From Candidatus Zixiibacteriota bacterium (lineage in GTDB: Bacteria > Zixibacteria > MSB-5A5 > GN15 > PGXB01): DNA of 64,000 bases. This document shows positions 54,390 to 61,420 of this stretch, one piece after another. Position numbers and translations under genes: made by a program. Under the pieces are notes generated by a model. It ran no database searches. It saw only the letters and a list, made by a program, of their open reading frames with translations, and had not been told where the DNA came from. The stretch is taken from the NCBI GenBank assembly GCA_016933955.1, contig JAFGTT010000027.1, forward strand, positions 124,001 through 188,000. The letters run 5' to 3'. How positions within the stretch are numbered: the stretch's first letter is position 1; the number at the start of each line of letters is the position of its first letter.

Positions 54390-55775
54390 TCAGGCTCGGA
54401 TATCATCTTCTTCCGTTACCGTTTTCTGTCCCATCAATTCAACCGGCCATATTATGCCCGTATCCGGATAATGTTGCACGACATTCGAGAAATCATCGAA
54501 AGTGCATCGTTCCTGAGCCGCCATAGCGGCTATCAGAAAGGCCAGACCAACCCTGGGATTTTCGAAACGGCCGAAATCCGCCCCGGCCAGAACCCCGGTT
54601 CCCTCGATCACCAGACCATCTTCCATTATTCCGCTCTTGACCCCCATTTTCTGCAGATTGGCCGTGATCTCCTCAAAAGGATTCAATCCTGACTCGCTCA
54701 TCTCCCGAACGCCCCTGATTACCGAGGTCCCCTTCCCGGCAGCTGCTATTATGGCCAGAAAAGGAATTTCATCGATAAGCGAAGTGGCCAGCGATCCGGC
54801 TGTCCTTCGAACTTTGATTTCTTTCCCCGTCACCGTCACCTCGCCAATCTGGAAACCGTCGACGTTTTTTCTCTCCCCCGTCTTAACATCCATCCCGGAC
54901 GCCTTCAGGTGATTTAAAAAGCCGGTGGCGTTATTATCCATACTGATACCCGGCAGGGTGATACTTTTTTTCTTTATAACTGCCAGGGTTATCAGAGCCG
55001 CCGCCATATCGAAATCAACCGGGATATTAATCGTCTGCCCCTGAAGACGAACCGACGGACCGAGGATTATTTCCCGCTTGTAATCGACGCTTGTGGTCCT
55101 AATTCTCTTACGCGGGTCGTGCGGGTCCGGCTTGAACTCCGGCTTCGGGGTCATTATATTTATATCCCCATCGAATCTTTTGATCCCCTTCTGGAAAACC
55201 CCCGAAGTGATTCGAAACTCTCGGATATTAACCGAGCATCCCGAAACCAGACCAAAAGCCAGCAGACAGTTCTTTGAATATGACAATGAAGACGATATCT
55301 TTATCTCGATGGGATGCTCTGCCGAGGCGCGGAAAACGACCTGTCGGGAATTGGCCTCATGAAATATATCAATACCCTTTTTATTGAGGACCTCGGTCAG
55401 GCTGTCGATAATATCGGAATTGACAGCTTCGCCGTAGTCAAGAATGCATGATTCATTCATCCCTGCCAGCAGCCCGATAATCAACGACAGCGGGGAAATA
55501 TCACCGCCATAAGTCAAATGCCGGTCTTCGGGTATGGTCGGTCCATCTCCCCGGCCAACCCGGAGAGTTCCTCCATCGACAATCACCCGACTCCCGATAT
55601 TTTTTAAAAAATCAACGGTCCGCCCGGTATTAAGTGATTTATTGTAGATATTGATAATCGTCTCGCCAGAGGCCAGGGCGCCGAGAATCAGCGCCATCTG
55701 GGTGGTATCGTAATCACCCCCGATTATGATATCGCCGGGCATTTGTTTTATGGGATAAATGGTAATACTCATCAT
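54390..55775 (-). CDS. Divergent EPSP-synthase-family (EPT) protein lacking key active-site residues
   Basis: The 461-residue product has the enolpyruvyl-transferase fold signs: 'ITIYPIKQMPGDIIIGG', 'ALILGALASGETIINIYNK', 'LPGISMDNNATGFLNHLKA', 'LIDEIPFLAIIAAAGKGTS' and 'VGLAFLIAAMAAQERCTFDD'. In AroA the N-terminal motif is PGDKSxSxR and a later one KESDR; here these read 'PGDIIIGGDYDTTQ' and 'EMSESGLNPFEEI', so the Lys, Ser and Arg that hold shikimate-3-phosphate and PEP are missing. The SRRPM segment is also absent. It may still be annotated aroA, but I doubt that activity. I start at the ATG at 55775, after the argS stop; a TTG at 55811 would overlap argS. Confidence 0.65.
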   Translation of the reverse strand: MMSITIYPIKQMPGDIIIGGDYDTTQMALILGALASGETIINIYNKSLNTGRTVDFLKNIGSRVIVDGGTLRVGRGDGPTIPEDRHLTYGGDISPLSLIIGLLAGMNESCILDYGEAVNSDIIDSLTEVLNKKGIDIFHEANSRQVVFRASAEHPIEIKISSSLSYSKNCLLAFGLVSGCSVNIREFRITSGVFQKGIKRFDGDINIMTPKPEFKPDPHDPRKRIRTTSVDYKREIILGPSVRLQGQTINIPVDFDMAAALITLAVIKKKSITLPGISMDNNATGFLNHLKASGMDVKTGERKNVDGFQIGEVTVTGKEIKVRRTAGSLATSLIDEIPFLAIIAAAGKGTSVIRGVREMSESGLNPFEEITANLQKMGVKSGIMEDGLVIEGTGVLAGADFGRFENPRVGLAFLIAAMAAQERCTFDDFSNVVQHYPDTGIIWPVELMGQKTVTEEDDIRA

Positions 55776-55788
55776 TCTGACCTGTTTT

Positions 55789-57600
55789 CTACATTTCTTC
55801 AGGAGATTCAATCCCCAGTAAATACAATCCTTCTTTGATCACTATTCTAACCGCCTCGACCAGCATCATGCGGGCCTCGGACAATTTCTCATTCTCGGAA
55901 ATTATTTTATCGATTCGTCCCTCGGAATCTTTTCGCTGATAGACTTTGTTGAAAGCGGCCGCCAGTTCCAGCAGGTACGAACTGATTACGTACGGTTCAT
56001 AGGTTGCCGCCGCCCCATCTATTTTCTGCGGAAACCTGTAGAGCAAATCAACCACCCGGTACTCCTCAGGCTGATCCAGAAGCGAATAATCAACCGCCTC
56101 CGGTAAAACCTTTCCATAATGGCGCACCAGCGATGACAACCGGGCATGAGTGTACTGCAGATACGGACCGGTTTCGCCTTCGAAATTGAGAACTTCATCC
56201 CAGTCGAAATTAACATCTTTCTGTCGCCGGGCCGACATGTCGGCAAAAAGGACCGCCCCAATCCCGATCTGTTGCGCTGTCTTTTCGATTTCTTTCAAAT
56301 CAGGATTCTTTTCTTCTATTTTCTTCCGGGCCAGCTCGACCGCTTTGTCCAGAACATCATCAAGCAGGATAATATTGCCCTCCCGGGTGGACATCATCTT
56401 ATCCTGGAATTTAATCCAGCCAAACTCGACATGCTCCAGCCGCGGCGAAACCCGTCTTTTCAAAGGAGTCTTCTCCGCCTCCTCAATCAACTCGACAACC
56501 TTAAATACCTGCCGAAAATGATCCCGCTGGGCGGAACCGACCACGTATAAAGCCTTCTCGAATTTGAAAGTCTGCCAGCGGTAAAATATCCCCGTAATAT
56601 CCCGGGTAGCGTAAAGGGTTGCTCCATCGGCCCGGGTCAGAAGACAGGGTGGCAATCCATATGGTTCCAGATCAACAATCAGAGCTCCCTGTGAGATTTT
56701 GGTCAGCCCCAGACTTTTAATCGCTTCAAGAACACCCGGCATCTGCTCATTGTAAAACGATTCCCCGGTGTAATAATCAAACCGGATCCCGAGCCGTTGA
56801 TAGGTTTTTTCAAAGGCCTCCAGCGACAGGTTCTTGAATTTCTTCCAGAGCTCGATTTCCTCGGGAGAACCCGATTCAAGATTTTTGAATGCTTCCCGGG
56901 CTTCATCGCCAAGTGACGGGTTATCCTTCTCCTCCCGGTGAAAACGGACATAAAGATTCAACAGCTTCATCACCGGCTCCTCGCCGAGATCCTCCTGTTG
57001 TCCCCATTTCCTGTAGGCTACGATCATTTTGCCGAATTGCGTCCCCCAGTCGCCCAGATGGTTTATCCCAATTGATTGATAACCCAATTTCTCGAAAATC
57101 CGATAAAGCGAGTGGCCGATGGCGGTTGTCCGAAGGTGCCCGATTCCGAATGGTTTAGCTATATTGGGCGATGAAAAATCAATGACAATTCTCTTTTCGG
57201 CGCCGACATCCGATGATCCATAGCGTTTTTTTTCTTTAAGGATTCCCGGCAGAGTGGTTCCGGCCAGATGGGGCAGGTCAATCCGACAATTATTGAAACC
57301 TCCCACCGCCGAAAAAATGAAATGACCTGATTCGGGATGTTCTTGCACATAGTCATTCTGCACCTGCACCAGTTGCCTGTTTATTTCCGCTGGATTTTTA
57401 TGGATTATTTTGGCCGCTTCAAACAATGGCAGGGCAAAATTGCCCATCTCCGGATTCTTGGGAGTCTCCAGACGGTTGTATATTTGAGCGGCATCGAATA
57501 TGAACAGTTCGGGATGCGCTTCTTTCGCCTCGGGAAAGGCCCGGGCCGAAGAAAGGGCAGTTAATTCGGCAACCTGTTCTCTGAATTTATCCTTAATCAT
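55789..57600 (-). CDS. argS: Arginyl-tRNA synthetase
   Basis: The 603-residue class I synthetase charges tRNA-Arg. It has the HIGH-type motif 'SSPNIAKPFGIGHLRTTAIG' near residue 150, 'NHLGDWGTQFGKMIVAYRKW', the KMSKS-type loop 'QDKMMSTREGNIILLDDV' near residue 400 and a C-terminal DALR anticodon-binding domain. It starts 4 bases after the stop of the small upstream gene. Confidence 0.95.
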   Translation of the reverse strand: MIKDKFREQVAELTALSSARAFPEAKEAHPELFIFDAAQIYNRLETPKNPEMGNFALPLFEAAKIIHKNPAEINRQLVQVQNDYVQEHPESGHFIFSAVGGFNNCRIDLPHLAGTTLPGILKEKKRYGSSDVGAEKRIVIDFSSPNIAKPFGIGHLRTTAIGHSLYRIFEKLGYQSIGINHLGDWGTQFGKMIVAYRKWGQQEDLGEEPVMKLLNLYVRFHREEKDNPSLGDEAREAFKNLESGSPEEIELWKKFKNLSLEAFEKTYQRLGIRFDYYTGESFYNEQMPGVLEAIKSLGLTKISQGALIVDLEPYGLPPCLLTRADGATLYATRDITGIFYRWQTFKFEKALYVVGSAQRDHFRQVFKVVELIEEAEKTPLKRRVSPRLEHVEFGWIKFQDKMMSTREGNIILLDDVLDKAVELARKKIEEKNPDLKEIEKTAQQIGIGAVLFADMSARRQKDVNFDWDEVLNFEGETGPYLQYTHARLSSLVRHYGKVLPEAVDYSLLDQPEEYRVVDLLYRFPQKIDGAAATYEPYVISSYLLELAAAFNKVYQRKDSEGRIDKIISENEKLSEARMMLVEAVRIVIKEGLYLLGIESPEEM

Positions 57601-57925: not shown

Positions 57926-59206
57926 TTATAACGGCTGTGATTCCACCAGGTAACCGTCCCTGGTATGTTTCTCCGAATCTCTGAAAAACATATAATACAA
58001 AATTGAGGAAAGCATGTAAAGCCCAACCGTTATCATCAGAGGCAAAGTATAACCGTGTTTTTCGATCAGCCGGCCGCCTACGGCCGTGGAAATCATCCAT
58101 GAGGAATTCCAGCCGAACATAAAAAGGGCATTGACCAGGGCATGTTCCTTTTGGGTCACCATCTCCATCCCGAAATTGGTCCCGATCGGACTGCCCATAT
58201 TCATTAATCCGCCGCGTATCAGAAAACAAACAAAGGCCAGTTCCAGCGAATATGTATAAGCCAGAATAACCATGAAGGGTATGGATAGCAGTTGGGTCGA
58301 AACCAGGGTTCGGACCATACCGATTTTTCGGGCTAGAATGGGACCAAGCAGAATTCCGACAAACATGGTGATATTAACCACCATAAAAAAGAAGCCAATC
58401 ATATCCGGTGGCTGTCTGAACCGGTCGCGGAAATAGAGATTTAAAAAGGGAATTATCAATCCCGCCCCGGTTCCGACCACGAAATAGGGCAGAAATAACC
58501 GGAAATAAAGCCCGGATCGTTTTTTTATCAGAGCCAGCGAAAATTCTGATCTTTTCTCCTCAAAACCCGGATCGGCGGCGCGGATCATGGAAAAGGGGAT
58601 CAGGGCCAGAAGACCCAGGCCGACACTCAATGCGAAAGTCCAGCGGTAGGCCGGGATCACCCCCCCGGCCATGGTAGTCAAGGCCGTCACCATCCAGCCG
58701 AAAACCATCGACCCCAGAACGCTGGCCAGAAGCGAGACCCCGAATGACAATGAAAATATATAGGTGCGTTCTTTTGGTGTCGAATTTCGCATAAAAAACG
58801 GCGCCGCGGCCACCCGGTAAAATGTCAGGGCGATTCCGGCCAGAAATGAAATCACCACCAGTAGTTGACTGACCGGCAGCCATGTTAAGAATAAAATCGA
58901 ACCGCCATAAAGAACGGTCGTGCTCAGGAGTATTTTTTTCAGCCGGATTCGTCGTAGAATGAATGAGGCCGGGATCGACGTTATAGTCATTCCGATCGCC
59001 CCGGCCGAAAGAATGGTGCCGATGAAGGATTCCGTCGACCCCTGTTCCCGGAGATAAAGATTCAGCAGCAACATATACCCGGAATAGGTCAAACCGATCA
59101 GAAAGGCAGCCGCCAGATACAACCTGACATTGCGTGAAAACAACCCCAGGTGATAGAGATAATCATTTATTGCCGAATGGATTCTATTGAGCTTTTTATC
59201 CGACAT
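57926..59206 (-). CDS. Major facilitator superfamily (MFS) transporter
   Basis: The 426-residue product has twelve predicted transmembrane helices: 'YLAAAFLIGLTYSGYMLLLN' first, then 'LVVISFLAGIALTFYRVAAA' and 'RLFLPYFVVGTGAGLIIPF'. The cytoplasmic loop after helix 2 has an MFS-like 'ILRRIRLKKILL'. Substrate unknown. It heads an operon with the 103-residue protein and argS. Confidence 0.88.
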   Translation of the reverse strand: MSDKKLNRIHSAINDYLYHLGLFSRNVRLYLAAAFLIGLTYSGYMLLLNLYLREQGSTESFIGTILSAGAIGMTITSIPASFILRRIRLKKILLSTTVLYGGSILFLTWLPVSQLLVVISFLAGIALTFYRVAAAPFFMRNSTPKERTYIFSLSFGVSLLASVLGSMVFGWMVTALTTMAGGVIPAYRWTFALSVGLGLLALIPFSMIRAADPGFEEKRSEFSLALIKKRSGLYFRLFLPYFVVGTGAGLIIPFLNLYFRDRFRQPPDMIGFFFMVVNITMFVGILLGPILARKIGMVRTLVSTQLLSIPFMVILAYTYSLELAFVCFLIRGGLMNMGSPIGTNFGMEMVTQKEHALVNALFMFGWNSSWMISTAVGGRLIEKHGYTLPLMITVGLYMLSSILYYMFFRDSEKHTRDGYLVESQPL

Positions 59207-59247: not shown

Positions 59248-60105
59248 CTAACGCCGGTCGGGATCGAAAACATATTCCCCACGGCAGACAAATACGGCCG
59301 GCCCGGTCAAAATAATGTTATCACTCTCAACTGGCCATTCTACCCGAAGTGACCCGGTCGGGAAAACCACCTCAACCGCCCGTTCCAGATAACCATTAAC
59401 CACTCCGGCTGCAACCGCGGCCGAAGCTCCGGTTCCCGATGACCCGGTGGCTCCTGCCCCCCGTTCCCAATCATTTAGAACAATTTTTTTGCGATTGACA
59501 ATCCTTACGAATTCCACATTGGTGCGATGCGGAAAATACCGGCTGTTTTCGATTATTTCGCCCAGCAATTTCCAGTCGAAATCGAAACGATCGACAAAAA
59601 TGACGGTATGCGGATTACCGACCGATAATATCGTCGCCGGAATTTTGACACCCTCAATTTTCAGAGGAGCATTGATATGATACTGCGCCTTCGACTTCAT
59701 GGGTACCCGCCGCGTTTCGAATTCCGGTCGGCCCAAAGACACCCTGACCATAGTCTCGGCAAGCGAGACCCGGATAATCCGGGCCTCGACCGAATCACCC
59801 CCGATTTCAAAAATCAGCTTTTTCCGCCGGGCGTACTTCCGATGGTAATAGGCGGCCGCAATTCTCAAGCCGTTACCCGATTTTTCCGCCCAACTGCCAT
59901 CGGAGTTAAACAGGTCGATACAACAATCAGCCCGATTACTCCGGGATAAAACCAGAATACCATCGGCCCCGACCCCGGAATTACGACTGCACATATCGAG
60001 AGCCATCCGGTTATAATCAATTTTTCCGGGACGCCGATTAATCAAATCGATAACCAGAAAATCATTTCCGAGCGCGTGATATTTATAGAATTCCAGCTTT
60101 TTCAT
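59248..60105 (-). CDS. DapF-like diaminopimelate epimerase homologue with both catalytic cysteines replaced by serine
   Basis: The 285-residue product matches DapF across its length: 'FYKYHALGNDFLVIDLINR', 'RNSGVGADGILVL', 'FNSDGSWAEKSGNGLRIAA', 'LSVGNPHTVIFVDRF', 'YFPHRTNVEFVRIV' and 'WERGAGATGSSGTGASAAV'. DapF converts LL- to meso-diaminopimelate with two cysteines, found as AEMCGNG and ACGTGA. Here both are serine (Ser76, codon TCG; Ser223, codon TCG). Other binding motifs are kept. Activity as an epimerase is doubtful. The ATG at 60105 gives the usual MKKLEFYK start; a TTG at 60114 is less likely. A terminator of the upstream aminotransferase precedes it. Confidence 0.85.
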   Translation of the reverse strand: MKKLEFYKYHALGNDFLVIDLINRRPGKIDYNRMALDMCSRNSGVGADGILVLSRSNRADCCIDLFNSDGSWAEKSGNGLRIAAAYYHRKYARRKKLIFEIGGDSVEARIIRVSLAETMVRVSLGRPEFETRRVPMKSKAQYHINAPLKIEGVKIPATILSVGNPHTVIFVDRFDFDWKLLGEIIENSRYFPHRTNVEFVRIVNRKKIVLNDWERGAGATGSSGTGASAAVAAGVVNGYLERAVEVVFPTGSLRVEWPVESDNIILTGPAVFVCRGEYVFDPDRR

Positions 60106-60140: not shown

Positions 60141-60166
60141 TAAAAAAAGCCCCGCCGGGCGGGGCT
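60141..60166 (-). terminator. Rho-independent terminator after the aminotransferase gene
   Basis: On the minus strand AGCCCCGCC and GGCGGGGCT form a strong GC stem, followed by seven Ts. Confidence 0.8.
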
Positions 60167-60193
60167 TGATAATTATCAATCCTATGACTTGAA

Positions 60194-61420
60194 TTACGGC
60201 ATATTGGCTTTGAAAACCCGGCCTAACCGTTCGATGGCGGATGACAGCATTTCGTGCGAGGCATTGGAGAAATTCAGCCTGAAGGTGTTGTCGCCCTTCT
60301 TGCCATCGGGAAAAAACGGACGGCCATAGACATAGGTGACCTTCTCTTTAATTGCCTCCTGCAGAAGCTCCGAAGCCGACATTGACAATGGCAGTTCGCA
60401 CCACAAAAACAGCCCGCCCTCGGGTTTGGTCCAGGTTATTCCCGGCGGGAAATGCTTTTCCAGCGCATGAATCATTAAATCCCGCTTGGCCCGGTAGCTC
60501 TTGATAATCTTGGGTATATGGGCCGAAAGTTTGCCGGATTTAATAAAATGATACAGGACAAACTGCGAGAAAGTGCTGGTATGCAGGTCGCAACCCTGTT
60601 TAATTTTTTCGAACATAGAAAGAATACTCACCGGCGCATTCATCCACCCGATTCTAAATCCCGGGGCGACAATCTTGGAAAAAGTCCCCAGCGAAATTAC
60701 GGCATCACCGCCAAGAGATTTCATGGTCGGCAAATTTTCGCCGTAAAAACGCAGTTCCCCGTACGGATTATCATCGACAATGGGAATATTATTGCGAACA
60801 GCAATATCGATCAGGGCTTTTTTGCGCTCGGTGGTCATGGTGATACCGGTCGGATTCTGGAAGGTCGATACGGTGTAGATGAATTTCGGTTTGTACTTCC
60901 TGATGGCATCCTCGACCTGATCGACCAGCATACCGTCATGATCCATCTCCACCGGAGCATATCGCGGTTTGTAATAATTGAAAGCCTGCAGGGCCCCGAC
61001 ATAAGTCGGGTTCTCGGTTACGATATAATCACCGGGATTGACAAAGGCCCGGGCCAGGAGTTCAATACCCTGCTGGGAACCGGAAGTGATCAGAATGTTT
61101 TCCATCCTGGATTTGGCCCCGAGGTTCGTTTCCCGCTCGGCAATCACCTCGCGGAATTGAGGGATTCCCATTGAAAAAGAATACTGCAGGGCCACCGATT
61201 TGAACTCATCAATAATGGCAACAGCCGACTCTTTTAAATCCTCGATAGGAAACATATCGGGCGACGGGTACCCTCCGGCCAGAGAAATAACCCCCGGCTG
61301 AGATGAAATCTTCAATATTTCACGAATGATGGACGTCGAAAGACCCCGGACATGGTCGGTAAACGGCCACTTGTCGGGATTGGCTTTGAGAGCCTCTTCA
61401 AAAGTCGATTTTTCATTCAT
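60194..61420 (-). CDS. PLP-dependent aminotransferase, class I/II, LysN/aminoadipate-type
   Basis: The 408-residue product has fold-type I aminotransferase motifs: 'PGVISLAGGYPSPDMFP' near the N-terminus, 'ITSGSQQGIELLARAFVNPG', 'YTVSTFQNPTGITMTTERKK', the PLP-binding lysine in 'ISLGTFSKIVAPGFRIGWM', and Arg in 'NTFRLNFSNAS'. The ISLAGGxP start and overall pattern resemble 2-aminoadipate/multi-substrate aminotransferases (LysN, ARO8-like). It may supply lysine or aromatic amino acids. It lies just upstream of the dapF-like gene but a terminator separates them. Confidence 0.88.
   Translation of the reverse strand: MNEKSTFEEALKANPDKWPFTDHVRGLSTSIIREILKISSQPGVISLAGGYPSPDMFPIEDLKESAVAIIDEFKSVALQYSFSMGIPQFREVIAERETNLGAKSRMENILITSGSQQGIELLARAFVNPGDYIVTENPTYVGALQAFNYYKPRYAPVEMDHDGMLVDQVEDAIRKYKPKFIYTVSTFQNPTGITMTTERKKALIDIAVRNNIPIVDDNPYGELRFYGENLPTMKSLGGDAVISLGTFSKIVAPGFRIGWMNAPVSILSMFEKIKQGCDLHTSTFSQFVLYHFIKSGKLSAHIPKIIKSYRAKRDLMIHALEKHFPPGITWTKPEGGLFLWCELPLSMSASELLQEAIKEKVTYVYGRPFFPDGKKGDNTFRLNFSNASHEMLSSAIERLGRVFKANMP

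What the first reader, a model, noticed from the sequence alone, without database searches (positions are those of the whole stretch)
59248..60105. DapF homologue with both catalytic cysteines changed to serine
Seen: the DapF motifs are otherwise conserved, but the two active-site positions read AEKSGNG (Ser76) and TGSSGTGA (Ser223), both with codon TCG. Known: diaminopimelate epimerase uses a Cys/Cys pair as acid and base on opposite faces of the substrate. Inference: the protein is either a non-epimerase that keeps the substrate pocket, or a Ser/Ser variant with a changed mechanism, and the organism would need another source of meso-diaminopimelate.
Basis: partly seen in the sequence, partly recalled or inferred. 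Interest (0 to 1): 0.8.

Follow-up and report, generated by a model that had tools for sequence, protein, structure and literature searches.

The report
DapF variant with serine catalytic pair
This cell-wall enzyme gene from an uncultured bacterium has serines where the characterised relatives need two cysteines, and the same swap is the only copy in genomes from several other bacterial phyla, so either the textbook chemistry is not obligatory or these bacteria have a hidden substitute.

Summary
In detail: window 59248-60105 (-) encodes a 285-aa DapF homologue with Ser76 and Ser223 (both TCG) at the two catalytic cysteine positions. It is neither an error nor a lone decayed copy. The genome is a Candidatus Zixiibacteriota MAG. 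Ser/Ser is nearly fixed in its order (53 of 56 dapF-bearing genomes) and also occurs in Acidobacteriota, Nitrospirota, SAR202 Chloroflexota, Myxococcota, Armatimonadota and others, as the only DapF in the 46 such genomes tested. Residues that bind DAP in solved structures are kept. 36 of 39 tested non-Zixi Ser/Ser genomes carry dapB; Ser/Ser dapF lies beside dapL (SAR202) or mpl (Acidobacteriaceae). So a functioning Ser/Ser DAP-type epimerase is the best reading, although engineered Cys-to-Ser mutants of related enzymes lose nearly all activity. No activity was tested. The window's order is odd in another way: dapB and ddh are missing, and no convincing dapA, DapL or lysA was found, yet a DNPR-type (DAP-type) MurE and DapF remain. 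There the substrate must be scavenged DAP, an analogue such as lanthionine, or come from an unknown route. I found no report of natural Ser/Ser DapF in the open-access library searched. Verdict: new variant of a known kind.

The parts
59248..60105 (-). dapF homologue, 285 aa, Ser/Ser variant
59878..59880 (-). codon TCG of Ser76, position of the first catalytic Cys
59437..59439 (-). codon TCG of Ser223, position of the second catalytic Cys
60194..61420 (-). class I aminotransferase, LysN/PH0207-like, directly upstream and conserved beside dapF in the order; functional link not shown
60147..60167 (-). terminator-like hairpin with T tail between the aminotransferase and dapF
57926..59206 (-). MFS transporter directly downstream, conserved near dapF in the order; substrate unknown

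Best explanation
The gene encodes a genuine DapF-fold enzyme whose catalytic thiol pair has been replaced by a hydroxyl pair. Shown: the sequence, a confident fold model, conservation, single copy, kept substrate contacts. Inferred: it still inverts one alpha-carbon of a DAP-like bis-amino acid (LL to meso) by taking the proton with Ser76 or Ser223, each at the N-terminus of a helix in a closed, water-poor pocket, and returning a proton from the other face. In Acidobacteriota, Nitrospirota and SAR202 the substrate would be LL-DAP. In the window's organism, where no route to DAP was recognised, the substrate would be scavenged or recycled DAP or an isostere such as lanthionine, feeding the DNPR-type MurE.
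For: Ser/Ser kept down to about 36% identity in the order. Both TCN and AGY serine codons occur at position 76. Asn14, Asn67, Asn164, Asn196, Glu214 and Arg215, the counterparts of the DAP contacts of Anabaena DapF (PMC12039745), are invariant in all 42 Zixi Ser/Ser rows. In 46 other Ser/Ser genomes it is the only DapF, and 36 of 39 tested have dapB, with dapA-like ORFs next to dapB in several (read from translations). Ser/Ser dapF is directly followed by a DapL homologue in four SAR202/Dehalococcoidia loci (L086 confirmed: NF006756, 590 bits against 507) and lies beside an Mpl homologue in five Acidobacteriaceae loci (L095 confirmed: TIGR01081, 421 bits against 388.7). MurE of the window genome has DNPR and GKGxEDYQ as in E. 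coli MurE. Natural Thr/Cys racemases exist (PMC8142540).
Against: Cys-to-Ser mutants of the related racemase PddB keep under 0.1% activity, with similar findings cited there for M. tuberculosis DapF (PMC8225329); HisR mutants are greatly reduced (PMC11602996). No assay of a natural Ser/Ser enzyme was found. In the window's own genome the DAP branch was not recognised, so the substrate is unproven. ddh was not searched in the Ser/Ser genomes of other phyla.
Confidence: 0.5

Rival explanations
1. The protein is no longer an epimerase. It keeps the pocket as a binding protein or performs another reaction on a DAP-like ligand (for example proton exchange or elimination), and meso-DAP in Ser/Ser organisms of other phyla comes from an unrecognised enzyme or ddh.
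For: Cys-to-Ser exchange nearly abolishes activity in tested relatives; a Cys-to-Thr change turns a hydroxyproline epimerase into a dehydratase (PMC8142540); the window's order keeps the gene without a recognised DAP branch; F. nucleatum HisR is a DapF homologue with another job in a DAP-less organism.
Against: It is the only DapF in genomes that have dapB, and lies next to dapL or mpl in some lineages. It would need a hidden second supply of meso-DAP in several phyla at once. The distal DAP contacts are all kept.
Confidence: 0.25
2. It is an active epimerase, but the proton transfer is not done by the serines: a water, the substrate's own groups or another residue acts as base, and the serines only position it.
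For: Serine hydroxyls are poor bases for a carbon acid of pKa near 29 (argument in PMC8225329, and PMC12039745). Some flanking positions differ between Ser/Ser and Cys/Cys rows, for example Tyr9, Lys75 and Trp178 in Zixibacteria.
Against: No replacement base is shared by all Ser/Ser lineages. Water is expelled when DapF closes (PMC12039745).
Confidence: 0.12
3. In the window's order the enzyme is specialised as a lanthionine epimerase (LL to meso-lanthionine) for a lanthionine-containing wall, as an adaptation to the loss of DAP synthesis.
For: No recognised DAP branch but a DNPR MurE; Gly49, the counterpart of the Gly that goes with lanthionine tolerance in plant and cyanobacterial DapF (PMC12039745), is invariant in Zixi rows.
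Against: Gly49 is common in DapF generally, in 8 of 12 Cys/Cys rows; lanthionine synthase was not sought; nothing is known of the wall of these bacteria.
Confidence: 0.1
4. Sequencing error, misassembly or a lone decaying gene.
For: MAG data; one relative (G040) has an in-frame stop.
Against: Ser/Ser is shared by over 50 genomes of the order and 48 proteins outside it, with intact frames and invariant active-site residues.
Confidence: 0.01

Closest known systems
Diaminopimelate epimerase DapF (TIGR00652, PF01678; structures 9mro, 3ejx, 2gke)
   Same: Fold (1.7 A to 9mro), length, DAP contact residues, catalytic positions at helix N-termini
   Different: Ser/Ser instead of Cys/Cys; in the window's genome no dapB and no recognised dapA, DapL or lysA
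Engineered C73S and C217S mutants of H. influenzae DapF (2q9h, 2q9j)
   Same: Serine at one of the same positions
   Different: Single laboratory mutants; the natural protein carries both serines and is conserved across phyla
Aspartate/glutamate racemases EcL-DER and MMP0739 (Thr/Cys) and trans-3-hydroxyproline dehydratase (Cys to Thr)
   Same: A hydroxyl residue replaces a catalytic Cys in a cofactor-independent racemase-type enzyme (PMC8142540)
   Different: Only one of the two residues is replaced; other families and substrates
F. nucleatum HisR, a DapF homologue in a DAP-less bacterium
   Same: DapF homologue kept without DAP biosynthesis
   Different: HisR keeps Cys67/Cys209 and acts on histidine; the window protein keeps the distal DAP contacts

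Membership tests
Diaminopimelate epimerase DapF | Profile score above the curated cutoffs of TIGR00652 and PF01678 | tested here: met
   217.2 against 114.65 bits; 143.2 against 34.7 bits
Diaminopimelate epimerase DapF | DapF fold with two pseudo-symmetric domains | tested here: met
   AF2 model pLDDT 96.3; Foldseek 9mro TM 0.90-0.92, rmsd 1.7
Diaminopimelate epimerase DapF | DAP-binding residues (Asn14, Asn67, Asn164, Asn196, Glu214, Arg215) | tested here: met
   Invariant in all 42 Zixi Ser/Ser rows; contacts taken from PMC12039745
Diaminopimelate epimerase DapF | Catalytic Cys/Cys pair | tested here: not met
   Ser76 and Ser223
Diaminopimelate epimerase DapF | LL-DAP to meso-DAP activity | not testable with these tools
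   No assay possible
Diaminopimelate epimerase DapF | Host genome encodes the DAP pathway | tested here: not met
   dapB and dapA not found, no ddh match, no DapL or lysA over cutoff in the window's genome; but dapB is present in 36 of 39 other Ser/Ser genomes
Bifunctional DapF/glutamate racemase (Chlamydia type, NF038284) | Score above the cutoff and absence of MurI | tested here: not met
   60.2 against 350 bits; MurI present in the genome, 258.9 bits, over cutoff
Histidine racemase HisR/CntK | Cys/Cys pair and histidine turnover | tested here: inconclusive
   Cys pair absent; distal DAP contacts kept; turnover not testable here

The most novel reading that the evidence does not exclude
A widespread natural class of cofactor-independent amino-acid epimerases works with a Ser/Ser hydroxyl pair, so that the thiol-thiolate pair is not required for PLP-free epimerisation; the class is the only DapF in many Acidobacteriota, Nitrospirota and SAR202 genomes.
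Probability: 0.4. Interest if true: 0.85.

Novelty: new variant of a known kind. Interest (0 to 1): 0.62.

Why it matters
PLP-free racemases of this fold are explained by a cysteine thiol-thiolate pair, and exchanging one cysteine for serine all but abolishes activity in the enzymes tested. A Ser/Ser DapF that is the only copy in genomes from several phyla means either that a hydroxyl pair can do this chemistry in nature, or that those bacteria make meso-DAP by a route not yet known; one enzyme assay separates the two. It also bears on inhibitors that trap the cysteines (aziridines), to which such enzymes should be insensitive, and suggests a reason for the change: the C. glutamicum cysteine pair is inactivated by oxidation (PMC5296763). 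For the Zixibacteria it exposes a gap: a DAP-type wall ligase without recognised DAP synthesis.

Tried and rejected
MurI substitute as in Chlamydia: rejected, MurI is present with both cysteines. Lone decayed copy or sequencing error: rejected. Second Cys/Cys dapF in the genome: none. meso-DAP dehydrogenase: none over cutoff in 60 genomes. Two dapA hits over cutoff in relatives (G005, G012): the one examined (L155, G012) scores higher on the HpaI-NOT-DapA exception model, although just below that model's own cutoff; the other was not examined. The best lysA hit in the genome scores 185 bits against 297.9 and was taken as another decarboxylase from its sequence. Single origin of Ser/Ser: the best tree splits it into several lineages, SAR202 grouping with a Cys/Cys Dehalococcoidia at 99, but the test with nested reversions included does not reject one clade (p = 0.355); an earlier test that rejected it was confounded by those reversions. 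Literature searches for a natural Ser DapF found none. Papers on Pyrinomonas and Chloracidobacterium gave no wall diamino acid.

Full report
Observation. The minus-strand ORF 60105-59248 encodes 285 aa with the DapF motifs intact except for Ser76 (AEKSGNG) and Ser223 (TGSSGTGA), both TCG. TIGR00652 and PF01678 score well above their cutoffs. E. coli DapF aligns at 34% identity with Cys at both positions. The window genome has one PF01678 protein only.

Is it fixed? A search of 60 genomes (own and 59 relatives) found dapF in 56. Reading the motifs gives Ser/Ser in 53, Cys/Ser in G002, Ser/Cys in G058 (both of its copies) and Ser at the first position in G050, whose gene is split. Relatives down to 36% identity share it. 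The MurI of the same genome keeps both its cysteines, so there is no general loss of catalytic cysteines. At position 76 both TCN and AGY serine codons occur.

Where else? The organism is a Candidatus Zixiibacteriota MAG, judged from its closest named relatives. The scan of genome contigs was capped at the best 80 loci and built on Ser/Ser patterns, so it cannot give frequencies. Outside the Zixibacteria it returned 48 Ser/Ser proteins: Acidobacteriota (27), Nitrospirota and Chloroflexota (5 each), Myxococcota (3), Armatimonadota (2), single ones from Sysuimicrobiota, Latescibacterota and a record labelled Bacillota, and a few without clear phylum, beside Cys/Cys and Cys/Ser ones. Cys/Ser occurs in two Zixibacteria outgroups (L072, L074) and in Rubrobacteraceae (L116, L132). 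In 50 of these genomes (46 Ser/Ser, 4 Cys/Ser) the protein is the only DapF over cutoff. Of 39 Ser/Ser genomes tested outside the order, 36 have dapB, as do all 7 Cys/Cys controls; dapA-like ORFs lie next to dapB in several of them (read from translations). Ser/Ser dapF is directly followed by a DapL homologue in four SAR202/Dehalococcoidia loci and lies beside an Mpl homologue in five Acidobacteriaceae loci; one example of each was confirmed over a curated cutoff. In the best tree Ser/Ser falls in several lineages, but one origin is not excluded.

Structure. The AlphaFold2 model has mean pLDDT 96.3, and the two helices begin right after Ser76 and Ser223. The closest solved structures are the inhibitor-bound DapF of Anabaena (9mro, 1.7 A) and Arabidopsis (3ejx). 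The residues equivalent to the DAP contacts of Anabaena DapF (PMC12039745) are Asn14, Asn67, Asn164, Asn196, Glu214 and Arg215. They are invariant in the 42 Zixi Ser/Ser rows and nearly so in the other 35. These include the residues that hold the distal amino and carboxylate groups, which argues for a DAP-like bis-amino acid as ligand. No replacement base is shared by all Ser/Ser lineages.

The pathway in the window's order. dapB is absent: TIGR00036 in the own genome and PF05173 in all 60 genomes, while each rings in 11 of 14 controls. dapA: 3 of 40 genomes match, two over cutoff, and the one of these examined fits the HpaI-NOT-DapA model better; the own genome has none. DapL: none over cutoff in 40. 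ddh: none over cutoff in 60. lysA: none over cutoff in 60, although three genomes of one family come near it. The MAG is 96.6% complete and the pattern repeats across the order, so missing contigs do not explain it; divergent or unrelated enzymes for these steps are not excluded. Against this, MurE is over cutoff in 55 of 60, and the own MurE has the DNPR and GKGxEDYQ residues of E. coli MurE; DNPR is the meso-DAP-binding signature (PMC3829189). Genes of the dcw wall-synthesis cluster are seen in L149 (read from translations). MurI is present. So a DAP-type MurE and a DAP-type epimerase fold are kept without recognised DAP synthesis. Scavenged DAP, an analogue such as lanthionine, or an unknown route are the candidates; none was tested.

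Neighbourhood. A LysN/PH0207-type aminotransferase lies directly upstream in 36 of 43 Zixi loci examined and an MFS transporter is found downstream in 35, with other genes (by sequence trpE/G/D) between in part of the order. A terminator-like hairpin separates the aminotransferase from dapF in the window. This is conserved synteny; it does not show a shared function.

Mechanism. The accepted mechanism uses a thiol-thiolate pair; Cys-to-Ser mutants keep under 0.1% activity in PddB, with like findings cited there for M. tuberculosis DapF (PMC8225329), and HisR mutants are greatly reduced. Natural Thr/Cys enzymes are known (PMC8142540). The single-copy, dapB-bearing Ser/Ser genomes therefore pose a real question: a hydroxyl pair that works, or another source of meso-DAP. 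I favour the first at 0.5, because the whole binding site is kept and the gene sits beside dapL or mpl in some lineages, but nothing here measures activity. One reason for the exchange may be resistance to oxidation, since the C. glutamicum pair forms an inactivating disulfide (PMC5296763); this is inference.

Limits. Most sequences are from MAGs. The Cys/Cys comparison set is small (12 rows). The literature library holds open-access papers only, so earlier mention of Ser DapF in subscription journals or in database notes cannot be excluded.

Noticed in passing
G000 and 59 relatives (whole genomes): The order lacks dapB throughout and, in the genomes tested, convincing dapA, over-cutoff DapL, ddh and lysA, while keeping a DNPR-type MurE: the source of its wall diamino acid is unexplained.
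   Followed up: partly
L072, L074, L116, L132, L009: Mixed Cys/Ser DapF proteins (first Cys kept, second Ser) in Zixibacteria outgroups, Rubrobacteraceae and one member of the window's family; possible intermediates or reversions.
   Followed up: partly
L049, L050 (G058): Two dapF copies in one genome, both Ser/Cys.
   Followed up: no
L024 (G040): dapF interrupted by an in-frame TAA, read as two pieces.
   Followed up: no
window 60194-61420 and 57926-59206: Aminotransferase and MFS transporter conserved beside dapF across the order; their role with DapF is unknown.
   Followed up: partly
G000:C9:70000-77000 (L151): An ATP-grasp-like gene (read from its sequence) next to a LysA-like decarboxylase homologue of unknown role.
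   Followed up: no
window 54390-55811: EPSP-synthase family protein that matches Pfam PF00275 but falls well below the aroA and murA cutoffs.
   Followed up: no
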